Source: Halobaculum rubrum (lineage in GTDB: Archaea > Halobacteriota > Halobacteria > Halobacteriales > Haloferacaceae). From it: DNA of 64,000 nt. A program made the position numbers and the translations under genes. The DNA is taken from contig NZ_CP082284.1 of NCBI RefSeq assembly GCF_019880225.1, positions 2,790,001 through 2,854,000 of the forward strand, read 5' to 3'. Below are positions 1-25,305 of this stretch, in pieces. The notes under the pieces are model-generated. The model did no database searches. It was not told where the DNA came from and saw only the letters and a list, made by a program, of their open reading frames with translations. Positions within the stretch are counted from its first letter, which is position 1. Every line of letters begins with the position of its first letter.

Positions 1-597
1 AGTGAGATTGCGGGAAGGACTGCACCTGAAAAGGATGATACTGAGTGTTGGGGTGGTGATATTCCGTGGGCCACCCCGAGTGAGATCACGTCGTTGGTGG
101 GCCAGACAATTGATGACACCGAGGAACAACTAACGGAATTGGCCTTGGATAAGGTTTCTTCCAACCTCTTGCCACCAATGTCTGTGCTGATGACAACACG
201 AGCGACAATCGGTGAGTGTGCTGTCAACACAGTCGAAATGACGACAAATCAAGGATTCAAGAATATCATCCCCGGAAAAAGGCTTGATACTTGGTACACC
301 TACTATCGCTTGGATTACGAGAAAGACTACTTAGCAAGTCTCTCAAAAGGTAGTACATTCCCTGAAGTTGGGAAGGACACCGTAGAGAACTTCGTAATTC
401 CAATTCCCCCATTAGAGGAACAACGTAAGATTGGAGAAAAACTTCGGTCTGTGGACGAGCAAATTCTGTCATATAAAGAGAACAAGTCACAGTACGAACG
501 CCTCAAACGCGGTCTAATGCAAGACCTCCTCTCGGGAACAGTCCGCACAACCGACACTAACATAGAGGTTCCCGAGGAGATCGCGCAGTATGGTTAG
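1..597 (+). CDS. hsdS: Type I restriction-modification specificity subunit HsdS, C-terminal fragment (window edge)
   Basis: The frame is open from the first base, so the gene starts outside the window and only the last 198 residues are visible. Near the edge is the target-recognition start typical of HsdS (W-G-G-D-I-P-W-A-T-P). Near the end is the conserved P-P-L-E-E-Q-R-K-I followed by a long amphipathic helix, the spacer that joins the two recognition domains. HsdS sets the DNA sequence recognised by the HsdM/HsdR complex. No hsdM is in view; it is probably upstream. Base composition is clearly poorer in GC than in the later housekeeping genes. The stop overlaps the start of the next gene. 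Confidence 0.9.
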   Translation, partial: SEIAGRTAPEKDDTECWGGDIPWATPSEITSLVGQTIDDTEEQLTELALDKVSSNLLPPMSVLMTTRATIGECAVNTVEMTTNQGFKNIIPGKRLDTWYTYYRLDYEKDYLASLSKGSTFPEVGKDTVENFVIPIPPLEEQRKIGEKLRSVDEQILSYKENKSQYERLKRGLMQDLLSGTVRTTDTNIEVPEEIAQYG

Positions 598-925
598 TGA
601 CCAAGGCCTGAGTTACGCTATTGGTAATCTCCTCGCTGGTCCGAGCCAATGGAAAAGAATGTATTCCACAGGTGCCACGGTCGCTTTCATTACCAATGTT
701 CTACTTGCGTATTTGAATGTACTACCACCACTATATTCTGATTCAAGTTCACGACTGGCTAATGCACTCGGAGTTCTTTTCTTGGAACTTGCTAACGCGA
801 TGATGCCTCTAATCGCTCTTGCACTTGATAGGCCAGGAAAAGCCGTACTAACAGCAGTACTGTACGTGATTGTTGGGCTGGCAGTTTGGACGATGAAATA
901 CGAGTCCGCAACCAGAGGGTACTAA
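590..925 (+). CDS. Small three-helix membrane protein inside the hsd operon, unknown function
   Basis: 111 residues that I do not recognise. The ATG lies 8 nt inside the end of hsdS, and the stop overlaps the hsdR start as TAATG, so translation is probably coupled to both neighbours. Three hydrophobic segments are visible at about residues 28-48, 60-82 and 86-103, with short charged ends (K-Y-E-S-A-T-R at the C terminus). No catalytic motif or signal-cleavage site is seen. Type I systems do not normally encode a membrane protein between hsdS and hsdR. It may be an accessory or anchoring subunit of this locus, or an unrelated gene caught in the operon. Codon use is AT-rich like hsdS and unlike hsdR. 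Confidence 0.7.
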   Translation: MVSDQGLSYAIGNLLAGPSQWKRMYSTGATVAFITNVLLAYLNVLPPLYSDSSSRLANALGVLFLELANAMMPLIALALDRPGKAVLTAVLYVIVGLAVWTMKYESATRGY

Positions 926-3885
926 TGGTCAGTATTCCATCCGAGGGCGGCGTCGAACGCTCGCTTCTCTCGTGGCTCGACGGCGTCGGATGGGAAACTC
1001 ACGGGCAGGACGGCGACCGTGGCGCGAACGTTCTCGATGAAGCCTACGAACGCGATAGCCACGAAGTCATCTACTGGAACCTCCTTGCCGAGCAGGTCGT
1101 CGCGCTCAACGATGCCGTCACCGAGGACAACGTCGAGAAGTTCATCTCCTCATTGAAGCGCGACCTCGATGCGGAGAACCTTATGGACGGCAACCGTGAG
1201 TTCCACCGTCTCCTCACTAAGGGCAAGACATTCTCCGTCCAACACGACGACGGGACGACCGAGACGATCTACGTTGACCTGATCGACTACGAGAACCCCG
1301 AGAACAATCGCTTCCACGCGGTGAATCAGTTCTCCGTTTCCCGCGAGACGACCATCCGGCCCGACGTGAATCTGTTCGTCAACGGGATTCCGCTCGTGAC
1401 GATGGAACTCAAGAGCCGGGCACAAGATAACGACTGGCACGACGCCGTCCGCGACCTCAAAGACTACGAGGAAGACGTTCCCCGGCTGTTCGTACCCGGT
1501 CTGTTCAACATCGCCGCCGACACGATGGAACTCCGCTACGGCGCGGTCGGCGCACCGAAGGAGTTCTACGAGCCGTGGAAGGACGCTCCCGAGGTGTACA
1601 AGGACGACAATACGATGCGGCAGGCGGTAAAGGCGATCTGCAACCCCGAGACGCTCCTCGATCTGCTGAAGCACTTCGTCTTCTACGAGCGACGGGCCGG
1701 TGGTGACGCGAAGATCGTCCCCCGGTACATGCAGTACTACGCGGTCAACGAGATTCTCAACCGCGTCGATGAGGCGGAACACAAGCGCGGACTCATCTGG
1801 CACACACAAGGGTCGGGCAAGTCCTTCACGATGCTGTACGCCGCCGAGAATCTTCTCTCACGTCCAACAGTTGCCCGTAACCCGCAGGTGTTCGTCATCG
1901 TGGACACGGACAAACTCAACAGCCAGATGCGGGACCAACTGGCGAACCTCTCGCTTGATCGGTGGACGGAAGCCGAGAGTATCGATCACCTGCAACGACT
2001 CATCGAGCAGGGGCAGAGCGAACTGGTTCTCACGACCATCCAGAAGTTCGAGAGCGTTGACCCGGACGTGCAGGGCAACGACGAGGTGATCGTCATGTCC
2101 GACGAGGCGCACCGCTTCATGGAGGCCGACCTCGGAAGCCGACTCGATGCGGCGTTGCCTGACTGTTACCACTTCGGCTTCACCGGAACTCCCGTCCGAG
2201 AGGGAGAACGCGAGAAGGACAAGAACACGTTCCGCGAGTTCTCCCCCGAGGGTGAGGACTACCTCCACCGCTACTCCGTGAAGCAAGGCATCGAGGACGG
2301 CCTGATTCTTCCCGTGTACTTCACGCTCCGTCACGAGATGGAGTGGGAGATCGATGAGGCGGGACTCGATGAGGAGTTCGAGCAGGAGTTCCGCGGCATG
2401 ACGAGCGACGAGAAGCGGGAGTTCATCCGCGACAACGTGAACGCGACGACGCTCGCGGAGATCGAACCGCGTGTTGATCGCGCCGTCGATGAGATCGACC
2501 AACACTACGACGAACACGTTGACCCCAACGGATGGAAGGGAATGGTCGTCACTCCGAGTCGGCGGTCGGCGGCGCTCTATGGGGAACGACTCATCGAGCG
2601 GCGGGGTGAGGAGGAAGTAGAAGTTCTGTACACTTCGACCAAGGACGACCCGGATCTGATACAGCAGTTCCACACCGACTCAGAGGAGCGCGACAGCATC
2701 GTGAAGGCGTTCAATCAGGAGGAGAACCCGAATCTCCTCGTTGTCCACAACATGCTCCTGACCGGCTTCGATGCGCCGGTGCTGAAAACGATGTACCTCG
2801 ACCGCAACCTGAAGAACCACAATCTCATGCAGGCCATCGCCCGGACGAACCGGCCTGCCGCCGGGAAGGAGAACGGCGAGATCGTTGACTTCCAAGGCGT
2901 GTTCGAGAACATCGATGAAGCGTTGGACTACGATGCCGAGACGAAGGCATACGCTGCCCGCGACAAGGACGAACTGTTCGACGAACTCGTAGACCAGTTG
3001 GAGTCGGTGATGAGCATCTTCGACGGAATTCCGAAGGACAACACGCAGGAAGCGACCTACGATGCGGTCAACCGCGTGAGTACCCATCCCGAACGGCGCG
3101 AGTTCAAGCAGCGGTTCCGTCGGCTCCAGAATCTCTACGAGGCAGTTGCACCGGATGGGCGGCTCGTGAAGGAAGGCATCGAGCGTGACTACAAGTGGCT
3201 GAGCCGAATCCATGTCGCGTTCAAGCGGACGACCTCCGGTGACGACGACCCTGAGGAGGATATGCGTGAGAAGACGCGCGACATTATCAGCAACAACGTC
3301 GAAATCACGGAGATCAAGCGCGACTTCCCGACGTACAAACTCGGGGAAGAGTTCCTCGAGGACGTTGAGGGGCTGGACAATCCCGGCGTGAAGGCATCAC
3401 AGATCGCTCACGCTACACGGGAACATCTTCACCCACGGGAGAATCAGAATCCCCGCTATAAGCGGTTGAGTGAGCGCGTAACCGATATTGTTGGACGGTG
3501 GCAGGGGGACGAAATGAGCGACCCCGAGGCGGTTGAGGCACTCAAATCCGTTGAGGAGGAACTACTGTCGGTCGAAGAAGACGCTGAGGAGCAAGGAATG
3601 GATGATGCGGAGTTCGCCATCTACACGCACCTCACAGAGGAAACGCCGGAGGCGGTGGATTCAGACGATCACGCCGAAGAAGTTGCTGAGGAGATCGTCT
3701 CTCAGTTCCGCGACCGAGTTGACCGCGATTACTACGGATGGAAGACCAACCAACAGACTATCGCGGAGATCGAACGCATCCTGCTGGATGTTCTGGTCGT
3801 GAACCACGACCTCGGACACCTCATCCAAGGTGACGATGAGTTCGTGGATGACGTTCGGAACTACCTCATCGAGAACGATGGCTAA
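925..3885 (+). CDS. hsdR: Type I restriction endonuclease subunit R (HsdR)
   Basis: 986 residues, normal for HsdR, the ATP-dependent translocase and nuclease of type I systems. The nuclease domain shows P-D (about residue 142) followed by M-E-L-K-S (about 157), the PD-(D/E)xK core. Helicase motifs follow in order: Q-G-S-G-K-S (about 295), D-E-A-H (about 392), F-T-G-T-P (about 418) and A-R-T-N-R (about 638). The C-terminal third is charged and helical, as expected for HsdM contact. I chose the ATG at 925 because it overlaps the preceding stop (TAATG); an in-frame ATG at 886 would overlap the upstream gene by 40 nt. The next gene starts 8 nt before this stop. Confidence 0.95.
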   Translation: MVSIPSEGGVERSLLSWLDGVGWETHGQDGDRGANVLDEAYERDSHEVIYWNLLAEQVVALNDAVTEDNVEKFISSLKRDLDAENLMDGNREFHRLLTKGKTFSVQHDDGTTETIYVDLIDYENPENNRFHAVNQFSVSRETTIRPDVNLFVNGIPLVTMELKSRAQDNDWHDAVRDLKDYEEDVPRLFVPGLFNIAADTMELRYGAVGAPKEFYEPWKDAPEVYKDDNTMRQAVKAICNPETLLDLLKHFVFYERRAGGDAKIVPRYMQYYAVNEILNRVDEAEHKRGLIWHTQGSGKSFTMLYAAENLLSRPTVARNPQVFVIVDTDKLNSQMRDQLANLSLDRWTEAESIDHLQRLIEQGQSELVLTTIQKFESVDPDVQGNDEVIVMSDEAHRFMEADLGSRLDAALPDCYHFGFTGTPVREGEREKDKNTFREFSPEGEDYLHRYSVKQGIEDGLILPVYFTLRHEMEWEIDEAGLDEEFEQEFRGMTSDEKREFIRDNVNATTLAEIEPRVDRAVDEIDQHYDEHVDPNGWKGMVVTPSRRSAALYGERLIERRGEEEVEVLYTSTKDDPDLIQQFHTDSEERDSIVKAFNQEENPNLLVVHNMLLTGFDAPVLKTMYLDRNLKNHNLMQAIARTNRPAAGKENGEIVDFQGVFENIDEALDYDAETKAYAARDKDELFDELVDQLESVMSIFDGIPKDNTQEATYDAVNRVSTHPERREFKQRFRRLQNLYEAVAPDGRLVKEGIERDYKWLSRIHVAFKRTTSGDDDPEEDMREKTRDIISNNVEITEIKRDFPTYKLGEEFLEDVEGLDNPGVKASQIAHATREHLHPRENQNPRYKRLSERVTDIVGRWQGDEMSDPEAVEALKSVEEELLSVEEDAEEQGMDDAEFAIYTHLTEETPEAVDSDDHAEEVAEEIVSQFRDRVDRDYYGWKTNQQTIAEIERILLDVLVVNHDLGHLIQGDDEFVDDVRNYLIENDG

Positions 3886-4600
3886 CTCCCCTGTCCACGA
3901 GATCGACCTGCTCGGGGAGTCCGTGGAGTACGAGGTTCGGTACAGCCCGGACGCGACGGAACCCCGCCTCGATGTGGACATTCACGGTGTGACAGTAACC
4001 CTTCCTGAGTCCACGGAATCAACTCCCACAGAACTGCTTCAGGAGAACGCTGTATGGGTGACGGAGAAGAAGCGACGGTACGACTCGTTCCGTGAGCAGA
4101 TCCCAGAGCGTCGCTTCATCGAGGGCGAGGACTTCCCATACCTCGGAGAGGATCGAGAGGTCATTGTCGAACGCCGGCCTTCCTCGGAGGTTGACGAGGA
4201 GACGTTCAGACTGGCGGAGCATCACGTCGAGGACACATCGCTGAAGCGGGCACTCGAATCGCTCTACCGAAGGAAAGCCCGTGAGAGATTTGAGAGTCGG
4301 GCAGAGTCGTTCGCTGTGGAGATGGGCGTCTCCTATGAGCAAATCGAGGTACGCAATCAGCGGACGAAGTGGGGTTCTTGTTCGACCTCTGGTACGCTCG
4401 GCCTGAACTGGCGACTGATGATGGCTCCTCCCGAGATCATCGACTACATCGTTGTTCACGAACTGGCACACCTTCGAGAATCAAGCCACGGCGACAAGTT
4501 TTGGTCACTTGTGGGCGAGTATGATCCAGAATACAAGGATCACGCTCAATGGCTGGAACAAAACAGCACGAAGTTGATGTTCTCTGAAGACGACCTATGA
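3878..4600 (+). CDS. YgjP-like (DUF45/WLM family) zinc metallopeptidase
   Basis: 240 residues. The C-terminal half carries H-E-L-A-H at about residue 193 followed by S-H-G-D-K-F-W, the zinc-binding signature of the YgjP/M48-related group. Upstream is the W-G-S-C segment (about residue 166) conserved in the same family. Its substrate is unknown. It overlaps the end of hsdR by 8 nt, so it belongs to the same transcript; genes of this family are often found next to type I hsdR, though their role there is not settled. The ATG at 3878 fits the operon; an ATG 48 nt upstream would lie deep inside hsdR. Confidence 0.88.
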   Translation: MANSPVHEIDLLGESVEYEVRYSPDATEPRLDVDIHGVTVTLPESTESTPTELLQENAVWVTEKKRRYDSFREQIPERRFIEGEDFPYLGEDREVIVERRPSSEVDEETFRLAEHHVEDTSLKRALESLYRRKARERFESRAESFAVEMGVSYEQIEVRNQRTKWGSCSTSGTLGLNWRLMMAPPEIIDYIVVHELAHLRESSHGDKFWSLVGEYDPEYKDHAQWLEQNSTKLMFSEDDL

Positions 4601-4944: not shown

Positions 4945-5554
4945 TGAAGGTCAGTACCTTGGGGTATCTCCAGAGGAGTAGTCCGTTTGAGTATGGGAAG
5001 TGAGATACCATAGATAACGGAGGGACACACAAACAACTGTAGTCCAACCCAAGGCGCTTCACGGTGGTGCAGAGACGTTTCTTATCAGATTAAGTAGTGT
5101 GTATCTCGAAAGATCAAAAACGGATTGTGAGCCATCTCTGAGGGCCTGAGTGAGAGCGGCCGAATGGCGCAGAAGAATTTTACAATTGTCCAATTAAGGA
5201 GTTGGAACATTACCCGGAATTCTGACCGCGCATATATGTAAGCCGGTGCGCGAAAATGCCGGTCTGAGACTGGGGTTTGCGGGTTGCGGGCGAAGTTTTT
5301 GGGCGTCTTGGAGGTCGAGGAATGTGCGTAAATGGAGGCTCGATGCGGTTAGACAGTAGGGCGACAAATGACCGTCAAGACAATATCGTAGATGGCGCTT
5401 TGCCGAACAGATCTATCTGGCAGCATCAGTTCTTTTCACAGAGTCGATTAAACTCAGGATCGATTTACGTTGTTCCACGTAACCGTTGGTTTTATGTGGG
5501 AATCTGAAGATAGTTGTAGGTAGAAGGCCTGTTTCGGGGACTCACCGAGGCGAA

Positions 5555-5615
5555 CCATTCAGAGTGCGCCATCTGCTTTCAAGGCAGACGCAATAGGCCA
5601 CTCTGCCACCCCACC
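5555..5615 (-). pseudogene. tRNA-Ser(UGA) 5' portion, 3' third not recognisable
   Basis: Read on the minus strand from G1 at 5615: acceptor GGTGGGG, T8-G9, a class II D arm with GCA/TGC stem, then an anticodon stem TCTGC/GCAGA around loop CTTGAAA with anticodon TGA (serine). After 5572 there should be a long variable arm, a T arm with TTCRAAT and the 3' acceptor CCCCACC. The following bases show only TTCGCCT without a pairing stem, and no matching acceptor strand. I also searched down to 4600 and found no split-off 3' half. This is therefore a truncated tRNA copy, possibly left by integration or recombination of the island to its left. Confidence 0.65.
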
Positions 5616-5702
5616 ACGGAGTCACCTTTCGCGGTCGGCGTCTAAGAGCTACCGGTCCACTGCGGAGCGACGATCCCGGACCAGCGTCGGCTTCGGCTCC
5701 GC

Positions 5703-6449
5703 TCACTCGTCGAGGACGACCGCGCCGTCGCGCACGCGCAGGCCGTGCTCGTGGACGAACGTCGCCGTGTGTTCGGGGACGACGCGCTCGGTCTCGATTC
5801 GACCCCACAGCACCGGCAGGAGGTCACGCAGGTCCGCGGCCGTGTCGACGCCGACGTGCATCGGGAGGAACTCGACGCGGTGGCCGGCGTCGTTCGCGCG
5901 GTCGACAAGCGTCTCCAGCTCCGCCGTCTCGAAGGCGGCCTCGTAGTCGACGGGGGCGGTGAAGCCCGCGTAGTACGTCCGACCGCGGGTCGAGGGCCCG
6001 AGGACGGTCTGGTTGCCGCGGAGCTTCATCGCCGCCGAGTCGATCACGGTGCGGGTGAGCAACGGCGCGGTCCCCCGCGTGACGGCGACGGAGTCGACGC
6101 CTTCCTCGCGCAGCAGGTGCGTGGCCGTGTTGCCCGCGCGCGCCGAGAGCGTCGAGCCGACCTGCGGCTCGAATCGCGCCTCGGTCACATCTTCCAGTGC
6201 GTCGCCCGCGAGCGCGCGCAGTTGGGCCTCGCTGGCGGTGTCGCTGACGTACTCGTCGGGGAGGAGGTCGTCGGGACGGAAGTTGACGAGCAGGTCGCCG
6301 CCGGAGCGCTCGACGGCGCGGAACGTGTCCTTGAGAACCGCGGCGTACAGGTCGGCCGCGTCCGCGGCCGACAGCGGCGTCGTCTCGACGAGTTCGGGCA
6401 AGGCGAGTCCGGGGCGTGGCGGGTCCGCGAGGACGGCAACGACGGTCAT
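5703..6449 (-). CDS. DUF2064-type GT-A-fold protein, possible nucleotide-sugar transferase
   Basis: 248 residues beginning M-T-V-V-A-V-L-A-D-P-P. The N terminus, the alternation of strands and helices, and the D-L-L-V-N-F segment resemble the DUF2064/GT-A superfamily, also found as 'transferase 1' proteins. The middle part has G-P-S-T-R-G-R-T-Y-Y-A-G-F where the family has the donor-site loop. The donor and acceptor are unknown. I set the start at the ATG at 6449 because the family begins right before the first beta strand; an ATG 9 nt upstream is also possible. It is divergent from the small membrane gene at 6509. Confidence 0.6.
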   Translation of the reverse strand: MTVVAVLADPPRPGLALPELVETTPLSAADAADLYAAVLKDTFRAVERSGGDLLVNFRPDDLLPDEYVSDTASEAQLRALAGDALEDVTEARFEPQVGSTLSARAGNTATHLLREEGVDSVAVTRGTAPLLTRTVIDSAAMKLRGNQTVLGPSTRGRTYYAGFTAPVDYEAAFETAELETLVDRANDAGHRVEFLPMHVGVDTAADLRDLLPVLWGRIETERVVPEHTATFVHEHGLRVRDGAVVLDE

Positions 6450-6508
6450 ACTCCGCAATCGGGCGGCACGGGCAAAGGGGTTATCACACGTCCCGACGCA
6501 GGCGAGGC

Positions 6509-16114: not shown

Positions 16115-18076
16115 CTACTCGACGGTGCGCTCGTGGACGCGGACGCCCTTCTCCGCGAGGTGGTTCATCTGCCGCTGGGCGAAGTCCTCCTCGCTGGTCC
16201 CGCGCGTGGCGAGCACGTACACCAACGCGGAGCCGGTGGGGCGCATCGTCCGGCCGGCGCGTTGGGCGCCCTGGCGGCGGCTTCCGCCGAGCCCGGACGC
16301 GACGATCGCGAGCCCGACGTTCGGCAGGTCGATCCCCTCGTCGGCGATCCGCGAGACGACGAGGGTGTCGCGCTCGCCCTGCCGGAACTCCTCGAACAGG
16401 CGCTGCCGGACGTGATGGCGCGTTTCCCCGGAGACGAACGGGACGCCAAGCGCCGCCGCGAGCGCCTCGCCTTGGTCGAGGTAGTCGACGAACACGAGTG
16501 CCCTCGCGTCGCCGTGGCGCTCGCGGAGGCGACGCACCTCCTCGATCTTCGCTGGGTTGCGGGCGGCGGCCATGTGTCGCTCGCGGCCGTCCGCGCTGGC
16601 CCACTCGTTTTGCGCCTCGTCGTCGCGCCAGGGAACGTACCGGATCTCCACCTCGGGCTCCTGCACGAACCCGGCGTCGAACAGCGCGCCCCAGTCGGTG
16701 CCGATCGGCGGGCCGATCAGCGTGAATATCTCCTCCTCGTTGTCGTCCTCCCGTATCGGGGTCGCCGACAGTCCGAGACGGTGTTTGCTCTGGAGATCGG
16801 CGGCCCGACGGAATATCGGCGCGGGAATGTGGTGTGCTTCGTCCGTGATCACGAGCCCCCACTCGCGGGAGTCGAACAGCGACCGGTGGCGGTCCATCCC
16901 CGCGGTCTGGTACGTCGCGATCGTCACCGGGGCGATCTCCTTCTCGCCGCCGTGGTACTCGCCGATCTGTGATTCGTCGAGGTCGGTGTGTTCCAGCAGT
17001 TCGGCGCGCCACTGGCCCGCGAGTTCCCGCGAGGGGACGAGGATCAGCGTCTCGCCGCCGACCGCCTCCAAGACGCCGAGCGCGGCGACGGTCTTGCCCG
17101 ACCCGGGCGGCGAGACGAACACCCCCGCCCGCTGCTCGATGAACCGGTCGACCCAGTCCGTCTGGTACGCCCGAAGCTCCGTCTCCAGCGTCACGTCGAG
17201 CGGCTCCCCGGACTCCAGGTCGCGCTCGTCGATCACGGGGTAGCCCGCCTCGTACAGCACGCGCTTCACGTGGCCGATCTCCTCGTCGTTCACCCACGAC
17301 TCGGTGTCCGAGAGGTCCGCCTGCAACGCCGCCCCGTCGAGCTTCTGTCGGGCGACGTTGCCCATCAGCTCCTCTCGGTCGGCCTCCAGCACCACGTAGC
17401 CGTCCTCGTGGGTCCGCAGGCGGAACTGGCGGGCGCGCTTCCACTGGTTCTCGGCCCACTCCTCCAGGTGCGGCGAGCGGCGCGGCAGCACCGACCGCAT
17501 CCGCGCGAGCAACCCCGAGAACTCCTCGAACGGCGCGGCCCAGATGTCCTCCTGGCGGATCTCGTAGAGGTAGCCGCGGGTTCCCGGCTCCGTCCCCGTG
17601 GAGTCGACGAGGTGCGCGAAGTCGGCGAGCATCGCACGAGTGTACTGCGTCGGCTGATCGACCACGATCTGGCGCCGCGTGGGGAACATGACCACCCGTT
17701 CGCGCTCGGCGAGGTCGCCCCACGAGGTCGGGTAGTACACCACCGGGTCCGACTCCACGTCGACGCGCTCGACGGTACCCTCCTCCGCGAGCGCGTCGAG
17801 ATGATCGCGCGCCTCCGCCTGCGTTCGGTCGGTTTCGCGGGCGACCTGTGTGGCTGTGAGCACCGGTCGCTGGGCCGCCTCGACGGCGTCGTAGAAGCGA
17901 TCGATAGTGAGGTCGGCGGCGGTCTCGTCGGAAGCACTCTCGTCGAAAGCATGCTCTCCGGGAGCGGCCTCGTTGTCGTCGCTAGTGGCGACGCGGTCGT
18001 CGACGATGTCGCCGTCCGTACCGGTGCTACCGCCGTCACCGCTTACGGGCGACTCGTCGCCGTCGTCAGTCATCAC
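16115..18076 (-). CDS. XPB/Rad25-like DNA repair helicase (SF2)
   Basis: 653 residues. The N terminus has an acidic leader (1-55), then a winged-helix-like segment (T-A-T-Q-V-A-R-E-T-D). The SF2 core shows P-P-G-S-G-K-T-V (about 322), T-D-E-A-H-H (about 415), G-L-S-A-T-P (about 445) and Q-R-A-G-R-T-M-R-P (about 605). The order and the DEAH box fit archaeal XPB homologues, which unwind DNA in repair together with Bax1 nuclease; no Bax1 gene is beside it here. The length is somewhat above the archaeal norm because of the N-terminal extension. Confidence 0.88.
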   Translation of the reverse strand: MMTDDGDESPVSGDGGSTGTDGDIVDDRVATSDDNEAAPGEHAFDESASDETAADLTIDRFYDAVEAAQRPVLTATQVARETDRTQAEARDHLDALAEEGTVERVDVESDPVVYYPTSWGDLAERERVVMFPTRRQIVVDQPTQYTRAMLADFAHLVDSTGTEPGTRGYLYEIRQEDIWAAPFEEFSGLLARMRSVLPRRSPHLEEWAENQWKRARQFRLRTHEDGYVVLEADREELMGNVARQKLDGAALQADLSDTESWVNDEEIGHVKRVLYEAGYPVIDERDLESGEPLDVTLETELRAYQTDWVDRFIEQRAGVFVSPPGSGKTVAALGVLEAVGGETLILVPSRELAGQWRAELLEHTDLDESQIGEYHGGEKEIAPVTIATYQTAGMDRHRSLFDSREWGLVITDEAHHIPAPIFRRAADLQSKHRLGLSATPIREDDNEEEIFTLIGPPIGTDWGALFDAGFVQEPEVEIRYVPWRDDEAQNEWASADGRERHMAAARNPAKIEEVRRLRERHGDARALVFVDYLDQGEALAAALGVPFVSGETRHHVRQRLFEEFRQGERDTLVVSRIADEGIDLPNVGLAIVASGLGGSRRQGAQRAGRTMRPTGSALVYVLATRGTSEEDFAQRQMNHLAEKGVRVHERTVE

Positions 18077-23823: not shown

Positions 23824-25305
23824 TCAGTCGTCGGTCGGTGCGACGGTCGCGTCCGAGCGATCCTCGTCCTCGTCGTCGTCGCCGACGGGCACCTCGCCGC
23901 GGGGGTCGGCGTCGCGCCAGGTGCCGCGCCGGTACCAGAGGTACGCGATGATCGCGCCGGCGGTGTTCGAGACCGCGAACGCCATCCAGATCCCGGTCGA
24001 CCCGAACGCGGGCAGCGGGAGGCCGAGGATGTCGGGTCTCGCCAGCCCCAGCGCCACCGGCAGCCGGATGAACCCGAGCATCAGGATGGAGATGGCGGCG
24101 GCGGTCATGGTCTTGCCAGCACCCCGGAAGCTGCCGGTGTAGGCGCGCATCACGCCGATGAAGCCGAACGTCGGCGCGACCCAGCGGAGGAAGTCGGCGG
24201 TCACGGCGATGACGGCGGGGTCGTCCGTGAACACCGCCGCGATCGGCCGGGCCGTGAGGATCACCACGATCCCGAGACCACCGAGGATCGCCAACATCGT
24301 CTTGGCGGCGATCCCGGCGGCCGTCGCCGCACGGTCGGGCTTCTCGGCGCCGATGTTCTGTCCCGTCATCGTCTCGACCCCGCGAGCGACGGCGATCGCC
24401 GGGAGGAAGATGACCGAGAACACGCGGACGCCGATCCCGTAGCCGGCGACGACCGTCGTCGGGAACAGCCCGACGATGACGAGCATCAGGTTCACCGACA
24501 GCGACCGGCCGGTTCCCTCGATCGAGGCGGGAACGCCGATGCGGACGATCTTCTTCGCGTACGTGAGATTCGGCACCATGTCCGCGGGGGTGATCTGCAC
24601 GCCGCGCGTGCCCCGGAGCATGATCGCCATGCCGACGACGAACGCTAAGGCCCGAGAGAAGATGGTCGCGTAGGCGGCGCCGGCGACGCCGAGTTCGGGG
24701 AAGATCCACCACCCGAAGATGAGGAACGGGTCGATGACGATGTTCACGACGACCGTGAGAAGCATCACCAGCATCGGCGTGATCGTGTCCCCGTAGCCGC
24801 GCATCAGCGCGGTGAACACGAAGAACCCGAACATGAACACCAGCCCGGAGGAGATGACCCGCATGTAGTCCGTCGCGAGCGGGAGCACCTCCGGCGACGC
24901 GCCGAGCAGGCCGAGCAGATCCCCGACGACGAGGTAGCCGACGCCGCCGAGGACGAGCGAGACGATGATCGCAAAGGAGACCGTCTGAGAGGCGGCGTAC
25001 TTCGCCTCCTCCTCCTCGTCCGCGCCGATGTGTTGTGCCACCAGCACCGATCCAGCGACGGTGACTCCCATCCCGAGCGAGAACAGGAGAAACACCATCG
25101 GGAACGCGAACGAGATGGCCGCCAGCGCCTCGGTGCTGTAGCGACCCAGCCACAGCGTGTCGGCGAGGTTGTACGCCGTCTGCAGGAGGTTGGTGACGAC
25201 GATCGGCAACGAGAGGTAAAACAGCGGCTTGCCGATGCTCCCGTCGGTGAGGTCGAACTCGTCTCGCCCCTTGAACACAGACGAGAGGCGGTCCGGAACC
25301 GTCAT
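23824..25305 (-). CDS. MATE-family multidrug/metabolite exporter
   Basis: 493 residues with twelve hydrophobic segments in two halves (first about 30-230, second about 250-460). The first helix region shows S-L-P-I-V-V-T-N-L-L-Q-T-A-Y-N-L-A-D, the conserved MATE start, and an acidic hydrophilic tail. It exports drugs or toxic compounds with Na+ or H+. Its ATG overlaps the stop of the upstream TetR gene by 4 nt, so they form one operon. Confidence 0.92.
   Translation of the reverse strand: MTVPDRLSSVFKGRDEFDLTDGSIGKPLFYLSLPIVVTNLLQTAYNLADTLWLGRYSTEALAAISFAFPMVFLLFSLGMGVTVAGSVLVAQHIGADEEEEAKYAASQTVSFAIIVSLVLGGVGYLVVGDLLGLLGASPEVLPLATDYMRVISSGLVFMFGFFVFTALMRGYGDTITPMLVMLLTVVVNIVIDPFLIFGWWIFPELGVAGAAYATIFSRALAFVVGMAIMLRGTRGVQITPADMVPNLTYAKKIVRIGVPASIEGTGRSLSVNLMLVIVGLFPTTVVAGYGIGVRVFSVIFLPAIAVARGVETMTGQNIGAEKPDRAATAAGIAAKTMLAILGGLGIVVILTARPIAAVFTDDPAVIAVTADFLRWVAPTFGFIGVMRAYTGSFRGAGKTMTAAAISILMLGFIRLPVALGLARPDILGLPLPAFGSTGIWMAFAVSNTAGAIIAYLWYRRGTWRDADPRGEVPVGDDDEDEDRSDATVAPTDD

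What the first reader, a model, noticed from the sequence alone, without database searches (positions are those of the whole stretch)
5555..5615. Broken tRNA-Ser(UGA) at the border of the restriction island
The 5' two-thirds are well formed, but the T arm and 3' acceptor are unrecognisable at the point where base composition drops and the type I locus begins. This looks like a tRNA-targeted insertion scar, with an intact copy expected elsewhere.
Basis: partly seen in the sequence, partly recalled or inferred. Interest (0 to 1): 0.5.

Follow-up and report, generated by a model that had tools for sequence, protein, structure and literature searches.

The report
tRNA-displacing defence island in a haloarchaeon
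The broken serine tRNA is the leftover front end of a gene that a mobile, restriction-enzyme-carrying DNA element split in two on entering the chromosome; the element brought its own copy of that front end, so the working gene is whole but now sits beside the element's DNA instead of its native promoter region.

Summary
Observation confirmed and tightened. Window 5565-5615 (minus strand) is an exact 51-nt copy of the 5' end of tRNA-Ser(UGA). The only intact copy found lies 14.2 kb away at the other end of the low-GC island, beside a 367-aa tyrosine integrase. Ten of ten congeners searched have one full tRNA, no fragment, and the two host flanks on its two sides. So this is the attR scar of a ~14.2-kb integrative element carrying type I restriction-modification genes.

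The twist: the element replaces the tRNA's 5' part, the rarer mode, which a 2021 review calls unique in archaea to pTN3-like (suicidal) integrases. This integrase is uninterrupted, PF00589, related to those of haloviruses HSTV-2 and HF2. Six other carriers at tRNA-Ser(UGA) show the same layout on one contig, a seventh across contigs; five of six relatives checked at tRNA-Glu, His and Gly use the 3' mode. A native promoter-like motif precedes the fragment in 6 of 8 carriers and the intact gene in none. That the element supplies a tRNA promoter is inferred. Known kind, new variant.

The parts
5565..5615 (-). attR: displaced native 5' end (nt 1-51) of tRNA-Ser(UGA)
   Evidence: 51/51 identical to the intact gene at G000:C1:2781298-2781379; absent in 10 of 10 congeners
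5640..5653 (-). native promoter-like motif of tRNA-Ser(UGA), now upstream of the fragment only
   Evidence: best tRNA-promoter matrix hit of the native flank, 7.1 bits, null P 0.039; a related motif lies upstream of the tRNA in 58 of 69 parsed loci not known to carry the element
5519..5529 (-). conserved right-end sequence GGCCTTCTACC, possible integrase arm site
   Evidence: a similar sequence at a similar place in 8 of 8 carriers; its inverted copy lies 45 nt upstream of the intact tRNA in this genome
5490..5495 (+). TATA-like TTTTAT in the element's right end, pointing across the att site
   Evidence: ATAAA at nt 111-122 from the tRNA start in 8 of 8 carriers; function untested
1..597 (+). 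3' part of hsdS (447 aa in all, begins at G000:C1:2789254)
   Evidence: one open frame across the window edge; matches type I specificity subunits
886..3885 (+). hsdR, type I restriction subunit
   Evidence: PF04313, PF18766 and TIGR00348 above cut-off
3830..4600 (+). YgjP-like metallopeptidase gene of the element
   Evidence: PF01863, E 2.3e-55
5703..6458 (-). first host gene beyond the element (weak DUF2064 match), neighbour of tRNA-Ser(UGA) in congeners
   Evidence: PF09837 at E 3e-5, just under its cut-off; flank on the 5' side of the tRNA in congeners

Best explanation
The fragment is attR of a ~14.2-kb integrative element (G000:C1:2781329-2795615, both repeat copies included) that entered the tRNA-Ser(UGA) gene through its own tyrosine integrase. 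The element's circular form would have carried an attP holding the first 51 nt of this tRNA next to the integrase gene. Recombination within that block left the native 5' fragment, with the native 5' flank, at the right end (window 5565-5615), and at the left end joined the element-borne 5' part to the host's 3' part: one intact gene whose 5' flank is now element DNA. Shown: fragment, intact copy, 51-bp direct repeat, adjacent integrase, empty site in congeners, same layout in other genera. Inferred: the circular attP, continued mobility, the exact crossover, and an element-borne promoter that keeps the apparently single-copy tRNA expressed. The cargo is a type I restriction-modification set, so the element probably acts as a mobile defence island.
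For: 51/51 direct repeat, copies 14,236 bp apart. Integrase: PF00589, 367 aa, uninterrupted. GC of the island mostly 0.45-0.61 against about 0.70 outside. Congeners: 10 of 10 with one full tRNA and no fragment; the sequence 3' of our intact tRNA lies on the 3' side of theirs in 10 of 10, with about 0.6 kb of extra sequence between in two (L030, L031); the sequence right of our fragment lies on the 5' side of theirs in 9 of 10 and 1.8 kb off in the tenth, G004; in G005 that match runs to the last base before the tRNA. Integrase beside an intact tRNA-Ser and a 5' fragment on its far side in 7 of 7 loci examined with both ends on one contig: G000, G012, G118, G127, G105, G154, HArc-gm2; G167 has a truncated integrase match and its fragment on another contig. 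Native promoter-like motif upstream of the fragment in 6 of 8 carriers, of the intact gene in 0 of 8. G105, whose integrase is 52% identical, carries hsdM, hsdR and YgjP-like genes at 89, 85 and 70%.
Against: No excision or circle was observed. No clear promoter was found on the element side of the tRNA: best hit 6.0 bits, null P 0.078, shuffled P 0.27, and it overlaps the candidate arm site. The repeat is perfect in this genome, so the crossover cannot be placed here. G012's fragment is decayed (19 exact nt at its start) and G154's is 83% identical over 46 nt, so not every carrier is a fresh insertion. The restriction genes are found in only one (G105) of the six other carrier loci compared, so the cargo is not a fixed part of this element type.
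Confidence: 0.94

Rival explanations
1. The fragment is a decayed second tRNA-Ser gene or a segmental duplication, with the island inserted nearby by coincidence.
For: It is tRNA-like and would look like this after loss of its 3' end.
Against: It is 51/51 identical and then ends sharply; it lies at the composition boundary; 10 of 10 congeners have one copy only; the flanks are split as an insertion predicts; six other tRNA-Ser carriers have a 5' fragment on the far side of their integrase on the same contig.
Confidence: 0.02
2. Usual 3'-type integration: the element carries the 3' half, and the right-hand copy was once the functional gene, later damaged.
For: The 3' mode is the common one (Islander: 3760 islands with 3' fragments, 159 with 5'), and relatives of this integrase use it (G116, G015, G017, G108; G103).
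Against: The right copy has no 3' half and is unlike a tRNA beyond nt 51; the left copy is complete and next to the host 3' flank; 7 of 7 one-contig tRNA-Ser carriers leave 5' fragments. Short 3' fragments just downstream of the intact gene in several genomes lie outside these elements.
Confidence: 0.02
3. A passive restriction island that entered by homologous recombination between tRNA copies and is no longer or never was self-mobile.
For: Cargo shared with G105 at 85-89% while the integrases are 52% identical, so cargo moves independently of the integrase; no virus structural gene among the five element proteins scanned with PHROGs.
Against: Uninterrupted integrase beside the att site; distance of 139-148 nt between tRNA and integrase match in all ten tRNA-Ser rows (L063 duplicates L059); conserved right-end sequence in 8 of 8 carriers.
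Confidence: 0.05

Closest known systems
pTN3-like integrative plasmids and proviruses of Thermococcales (IntpTN3)
   Same: attB in the 5' half of a tRNA gene; the restored tRNA is separated from its original promoter (PMC8371274 section 18 read; PMC5495485 passages)
   Different: pTN3-like integrases are suicidal, the integrase gene being disrupted on integration, and have the PF16795 domain (PMC8371274 section 9 part 1; PMC5495485 passages); here the integrase gene is uninterrupted, the att block lies outside it and the domain is PF00589
Haloarchaeal tRNA islands and viruses with HF2/HSTV-2-type integrases (Haloquadratum GI3, tRNA-Glu islands, HF2, HSTV-2)
   Same: Related integrases: 42% identity over 98% to HSTV-2's and 35% to HF2's; integrase beside the tRNA
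   Different: They carry the tRNA 3' part: GI3 ends with a 43-nt repeat of the 3' end of tRNA-His (PMC3119063 section 21 read); HF2 has a piece matching nt 16-72 of a tRNA-Thr and HSTV-2 one matching nt 18-88 of an 88-nt tRNA-Leu call, both in the sense of the integrase
CalSub-E1, at the 5'-distal region of a tRNA-Ser gene of Ca. C. subterraneum
   Same: 5' recombination in a tRNA-Ser gene of an archaeon (PMC6563490 passages)
   Different: Reported there as the single 5' case among the tRNA-targeting elements of that survey; its integrase was not compared here
Islands with 5' tDNA fragments in the Islander database
   Same: Same signature: a 5' fragment upstream of a regenerated tDNA (159 of 3919 islands; PMC4383910 passages)
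   Different: The individual entries were not seen or matched to this locus or family

Membership tests
tRNA-targeting integrative element (tyrosine integrase island) | Regenerated tRNA at one end and a displaced fragment of it at the other, in direct orientation | tested here: met
   51/51 repeat, 14,236 bp apart
tRNA-targeting integrative element (tyrosine integrase island) | Tyrosine integrase gene on board near an att site | tested here: met
   PF00589, E 3.6e-18; 367-aa open frame starting about 139 nt from the tRNA
tRNA-targeting integrative element (tyrosine integrase island) | Empty site in close relatives | tested here: met
   10 of 10 congeners without the fragment; flanks on the two sides of one tRNA
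tRNA-targeting integrative element (tyrosine integrase island) | Excision as a circle with a joined attP | not testable with these tools
   no reads or cultures
HSTV2-like integrase family (as named in PMC8371274) | At least 30% identity over at least 60% of the protein | tested here: met
   42.3% over 98% to the HSTV-2 integrase; pairwise only, the paper's clustering was not rerun
HSTV2-like integrase family (as named in PMC8371274) | PF00589 as the single Pfam domain | tested here: met
   PF00589 is the only hit above its cut-off
[quoted passage not shown]
   nt 1-51 shared
pTN3-like integrases | Suicidal: integrase gene disrupted on integration | tested here: not met
   integrase frame intact in the integrated state, att block outside it
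pTN3-like integrases | Phage_integr_3 domain (PF16795) | tested here: not met
   no PF16795 hit at E 0.01
Type I restriction-modification locus (cargo) | hsdM, hsdS and hsdR together | tested here: met
Type I restriction-modification locus (cargo) | Restriction activity | not testable with these tools
   sequence only

The most novel reading that the evidence does not exclude
Within one haloarchaeal integrase family of other domain content than pTN3's, the tRNA half captured by the element has switched between 3' and 5' at least twice and in two layouts: the tRNA flipped relative to the integrase (tRNA-Ser clade) and the tRNA block moved to the arm away from the integrase (tRNA-Arg and tRNA-Gly elements). 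In the tRNA-Ser clade the element has taken over the promoter of an apparently single-copy tRNA, so the host depends on element DNA for that tRNA, and a right-end TATA-like box may switch on the integrase only in the excised circle. Strand exchange may lie before nt 19, in the D arm, rather than in the anticodon loop.
Probability: 0.25. Interest if true: 0.62.

Novelty: new variant of a known kind. Interest (0 to 1): 0.45.

Why it matters
5'-type integration is the rare mode and has a consequence that the common 3' mode avoids: the regenerated tRNA loses its native promoter region and must be transcribed from element DNA. Here is a set of non-suicidal elements doing this repeatedly at one tRNA gene, beside close integrase relatives that use the 3' mode, so that what decides which half is captured can be studied within one family. 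It also qualifies a review's statement that in archaea the 5' half is targeted by pTN3-like integrases alone, and shows type I restriction genes shared between two such elements whose integrases are far more diverged.

Tried and rejected
Promoter on the element side: a matrix trained on 37 tRNA upstream regions of this genome (leave-one-out median 10.3 bits, null median 2.2) gave 6.0 bits at -46 for the element side and 7.1 bits for the native side (null P 0.078 and 0.039; shuffled element P 0.27); the element hit coincides with the candidate arm site, so no claim is made. Anticodon-loop crossover, my first idea: in G154, crossovers between nt 7 and 29 yield a parental tRNA identical to native ones of that genus, those from nt 30 to 41 leave 1-3 mismatches and from nt 42 one; in G118 (1 against 2 mismatches) and G127 (2 against 3 or more) a crossover before nt 19 fits better than a later one. 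Suggestive only, three loci. A likeness between the tRNA-Glu and the reversed tRNA-Ser anticodon loop was weighed by eye and dropped as not specific. Single origin of the 5' mode: the tree needs 2 changes once L066 and L068 are counted as 5', but holding the 5' rows together is not rejected (p-AU 0.111), so the number of origins is open. With L066 and L068 left unlabelled one change sufficed. The viral-contig scan found no relative. The stretches between tRNA and 5' flank in congener G004 (1.8 kb) and in G028 (2.1 kb) gave no match to this integrase or to a second tRNA fragment and were not pursued. In G165, G126, G178, G128 and G168, whose tRNA-Ser lacks the native upstream motif, no integrase and no second copy was found in the 13-40 kb read: unexplained. 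No structure was predicted.

Full report
What is there. The window is archaeal (archaeal 16S and 23S rRNA models) and lies at G000:C1:2790001-2854000 of a 3.06-Mb genome. Three named records with a relative of its integrase are two Halorubrum and one 'Halobacteria archaeon'. At 5565-5615 on the minus strand is a 51-nt sequence identical to nt 1-51 of a complete 82-nt tRNA-Ser(UGA) at C1:2781298-2781379, also on the minus strand. ARAGORN finds no tRNA at the window site, and the Rfam tRNA model gives 21.5 bits, under its gathering score of 29. A search of the genome with window 5520-5640 found these two places only; a search with the full tRNA added the 3' half of tRNA-Ser(GCT). So the partner copy is the only tRNA-Ser(UGA) gene detected in this genome, which is rated 97% complete.

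The element. Between the two copies lie 14.2 kb with GC mostly 0.45-0.61 against about 0.70 outside. Next to the intact tRNA, reading away from it, is a 367-aa tyrosine recombinase (PF00589, E 3.6e-18). Other recognised genes are a uracil-DNA-glycosylase-superfamily protein (PF03167), hsdM, a 447-aa hsdS that spans the window edge, hsdR and a YgjP-like gene; three further open frames scanned (178, 597 and 202 aa) had no Pfam match above its cut-off.

Empty site. The 10 congeners searched (G001-G010) each have one full-length tRNA-Ser(UGA) and no 5' fragment. In their ~3-kb loci the sequence 3' of our intact tRNA lies 3' of theirs in 10 of 10, with about 0.6 kb extra between in two; the sequence right of our fragment lies 5' of theirs in 9 of 10. 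In the tenth (G004) it lies 1.8 kb off. In G005 the match to the right-hand flank runs to the last base before the tRNA. The native order is therefore right flank, tRNA, left flank. The native 5' end stayed with the right flank, and the element supplied the 5' part of the gene that is intact today.

The same mode elsewhere. Of 170 genomes of the family searched with the integrase, 88 have a relative at E <= 1e-30. I examined the 30 loci returned plus three named loci, not the other matches. Among these, relatives of 60% identity or more with a visible tRNA sit beside tRNA-Ser(UGA) with the tRNA's 5' end toward the integrase, as does one of 52% (L067); L069 starts at a contig end and shows none. 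For seven loci with both ends on one contig (G000, G012, G118, G127, G105, G154, HArc-gm2) I looked for a fragment and found a 5' fragment on the far side of the integrase in 7 of 7, 3.1 to 18.2 kb away; G012's is decayed to 19 exact nt at its start. G167 has a truncated integrase match and its fragment on another contig. By contrast, of six relatives at tRNA-Glu, His or Gly examined, 3' fragments were found in five: G116 nt 19-75, G015 nt 14-75, G017 nt 40-76, G108 nt 32-74 and G103 nt 30-71, 48 kb away. In G156 none was found, its contig ending 5.5 kb past the tRNA. HF2 carries an annotated truncated tRNA-Thr matching nt 16-72, and HSTV-2 a tRNA-Leu piece matching nt 18-88, both in the 3' manner.

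A second 5' layout. L066 (G099) and L068 (G192) had no tRNA call beside the integrase. They turned out to have a 5' fragment there (tRNA-Arg nt 1-48; tRNA-Gly nt 1-39) and the intact tRNA 8.7 and 7.2 kb away on the other side. In a tree of 38 integrases the tRNA-Ser group is one supported clade (100/99), with L069 inside it. With L066 and L068 counted as 5', the tree needs two changes between 3' and 5', but a single origin is not rejected (p-AU 0.111).

Promoter. In the tRNA-Ser(UGA) loci returned (77 loci, at most 30 a call), two could not be parsed and six are carriers. Of the other 69, 58 have a motif of the form CGNYA(2-5 nt)TTA within 50 to 20 nt upstream; chance is 0.0006 per 30-nt stretch. 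The pattern was drawn up after looking at these sequences, and related loci count repeatedly. Among eight carriers it precedes the fragment in 6 and the intact gene in none. So the native promoter-like region is detached from the working gene. What replaces it is unknown: the best candidate on the element side is weak and overlaps an inverted repeat that is as likely an integrase arm site: exact repeats of 9 nt between left and right end in G000, G118 and G127, none of that length in four others; a looser left motif in 6 of 8 and right motif in 8 of 8 carriers.

Crossover. The repeat is perfect in this genome and so uninformative. In G154 the intact tRNA has G at nt 7 opposite U in the 3' strand of the acceptor stem, where native tRNAs of that genus shown have A-U or G-C, as expected of a hybrid of element 5' and host 3' parts. 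Testing all crossover points, nt 7-29 gives a parental host tRNA identical to native ones; G118 and G127 prefer a point before nt 19. This hints at the D arm rather than the anticodon loop but rests on three loci.

Cargo. Of six other carrier loci compared, only G105 has the restriction genes (hsdM 89%, hsdR 85%, YgjP-like 70% identical), although its integrase is only 52% identical; the 597-aa open frame has distant matches in G127 and HArc-gm2. Cargo and integrase thus have different histories.

Comparison with print. A 2021 review states that pTN3-like integrases are unique in archaea in using the 5' half of a tRNA gene and that the recombinant tRNA is expressed from the integrase promoter (PMC8371274, section 18 read). 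A survey of thaumarchaeal elements'-distal recombination considerably less frequent, citing five papers, and reports one case of its own, at tRNA-Ser of Ca. C. subterraneum (PMC6563490, passages). The Islander database counts 159 islands with 5' fragments and 3760 with 3' fragments (PMC4383910, passages). The Haloquadratum paper describes 3'-type islands at tRNA-His and tRNA-Glu with integrases related to HF2's (PMC3119063, section 21 read). A survey of archaeal tailed viruses lists haloarchaeal proviruses in tRNA genes with their att sites in a table that I did not see (PMC8651126, passages), so 5' cases may be hidden there. My searches listed no paper that I recognised as describing 5'-type elements of haloarchaea; most papers of subscription journals are not held, and the paper I asked for as Williams 2002 (identifier from memory) was not held. 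The locus is thus an ordinary tRNA-island scar in kind, with an uncommon and, as far as these searches go, undescribed polarity for its integrase family.

Noticed in passing
L058, L060, L091, L097 and other tRNA-Ser(UGA) loci: 22-23-nt 3'-end fragments of tRNA-Ser(UGA) lie roughly 80-400 bp downstream of the intact gene in many genomes, sometimes several in a row: probably scars of a second, 3'-type integrase that uses the same gene.
   Followed up: partly
L200 2156-2203 and L204 8876-8950 (G099); L201 2983-3021 and L207 12747-12817 (G192): Elements with a 5' tRNA fragment beside the integrase and the intact tRNA 7-9 kb away: a second 5'-type layout, at tRNA-Arg(TCG) and tRNA-Gly(CCC).
   Followed up: partly
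window 886-4600 against L096 3647-10189 (G105): hsdM, hsdR and YgjP-like genes are 89, 85 and 70% identical in an element whose integrase is only 52% identical: the cargo appears to move between elements at the same tRNA.
   Followed up: partly
window 5490-5495 and the right ends of seven other carriers: TATA-like TTTTAT at a nearly fixed place in 8 of 8 carriers, oriented to transcribe across attP into the integrase in the circular form.
   Followed up: no
L009 13321-13926 (-): Uracil-DNA-glycosylase-superfamily (Mug-like) gene within the element; role unknown.
   Followed up: no
L100-L101 (G108), joined positions 323-396, 17069-17141 and 24845-24887: Two full tRNA-His copies and a 43-nt 3' fragment in one stretch: looks like tandem integrations.
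   Followed up: no
L196 1075 and 7499 (G124): A 5' fragment of tRNA-Ser 6.4 kb from an intact copy that keeps a native-like upstream motif, with no integrase of this family in the 9 kb read: possibly another element type.
   Followed up: no
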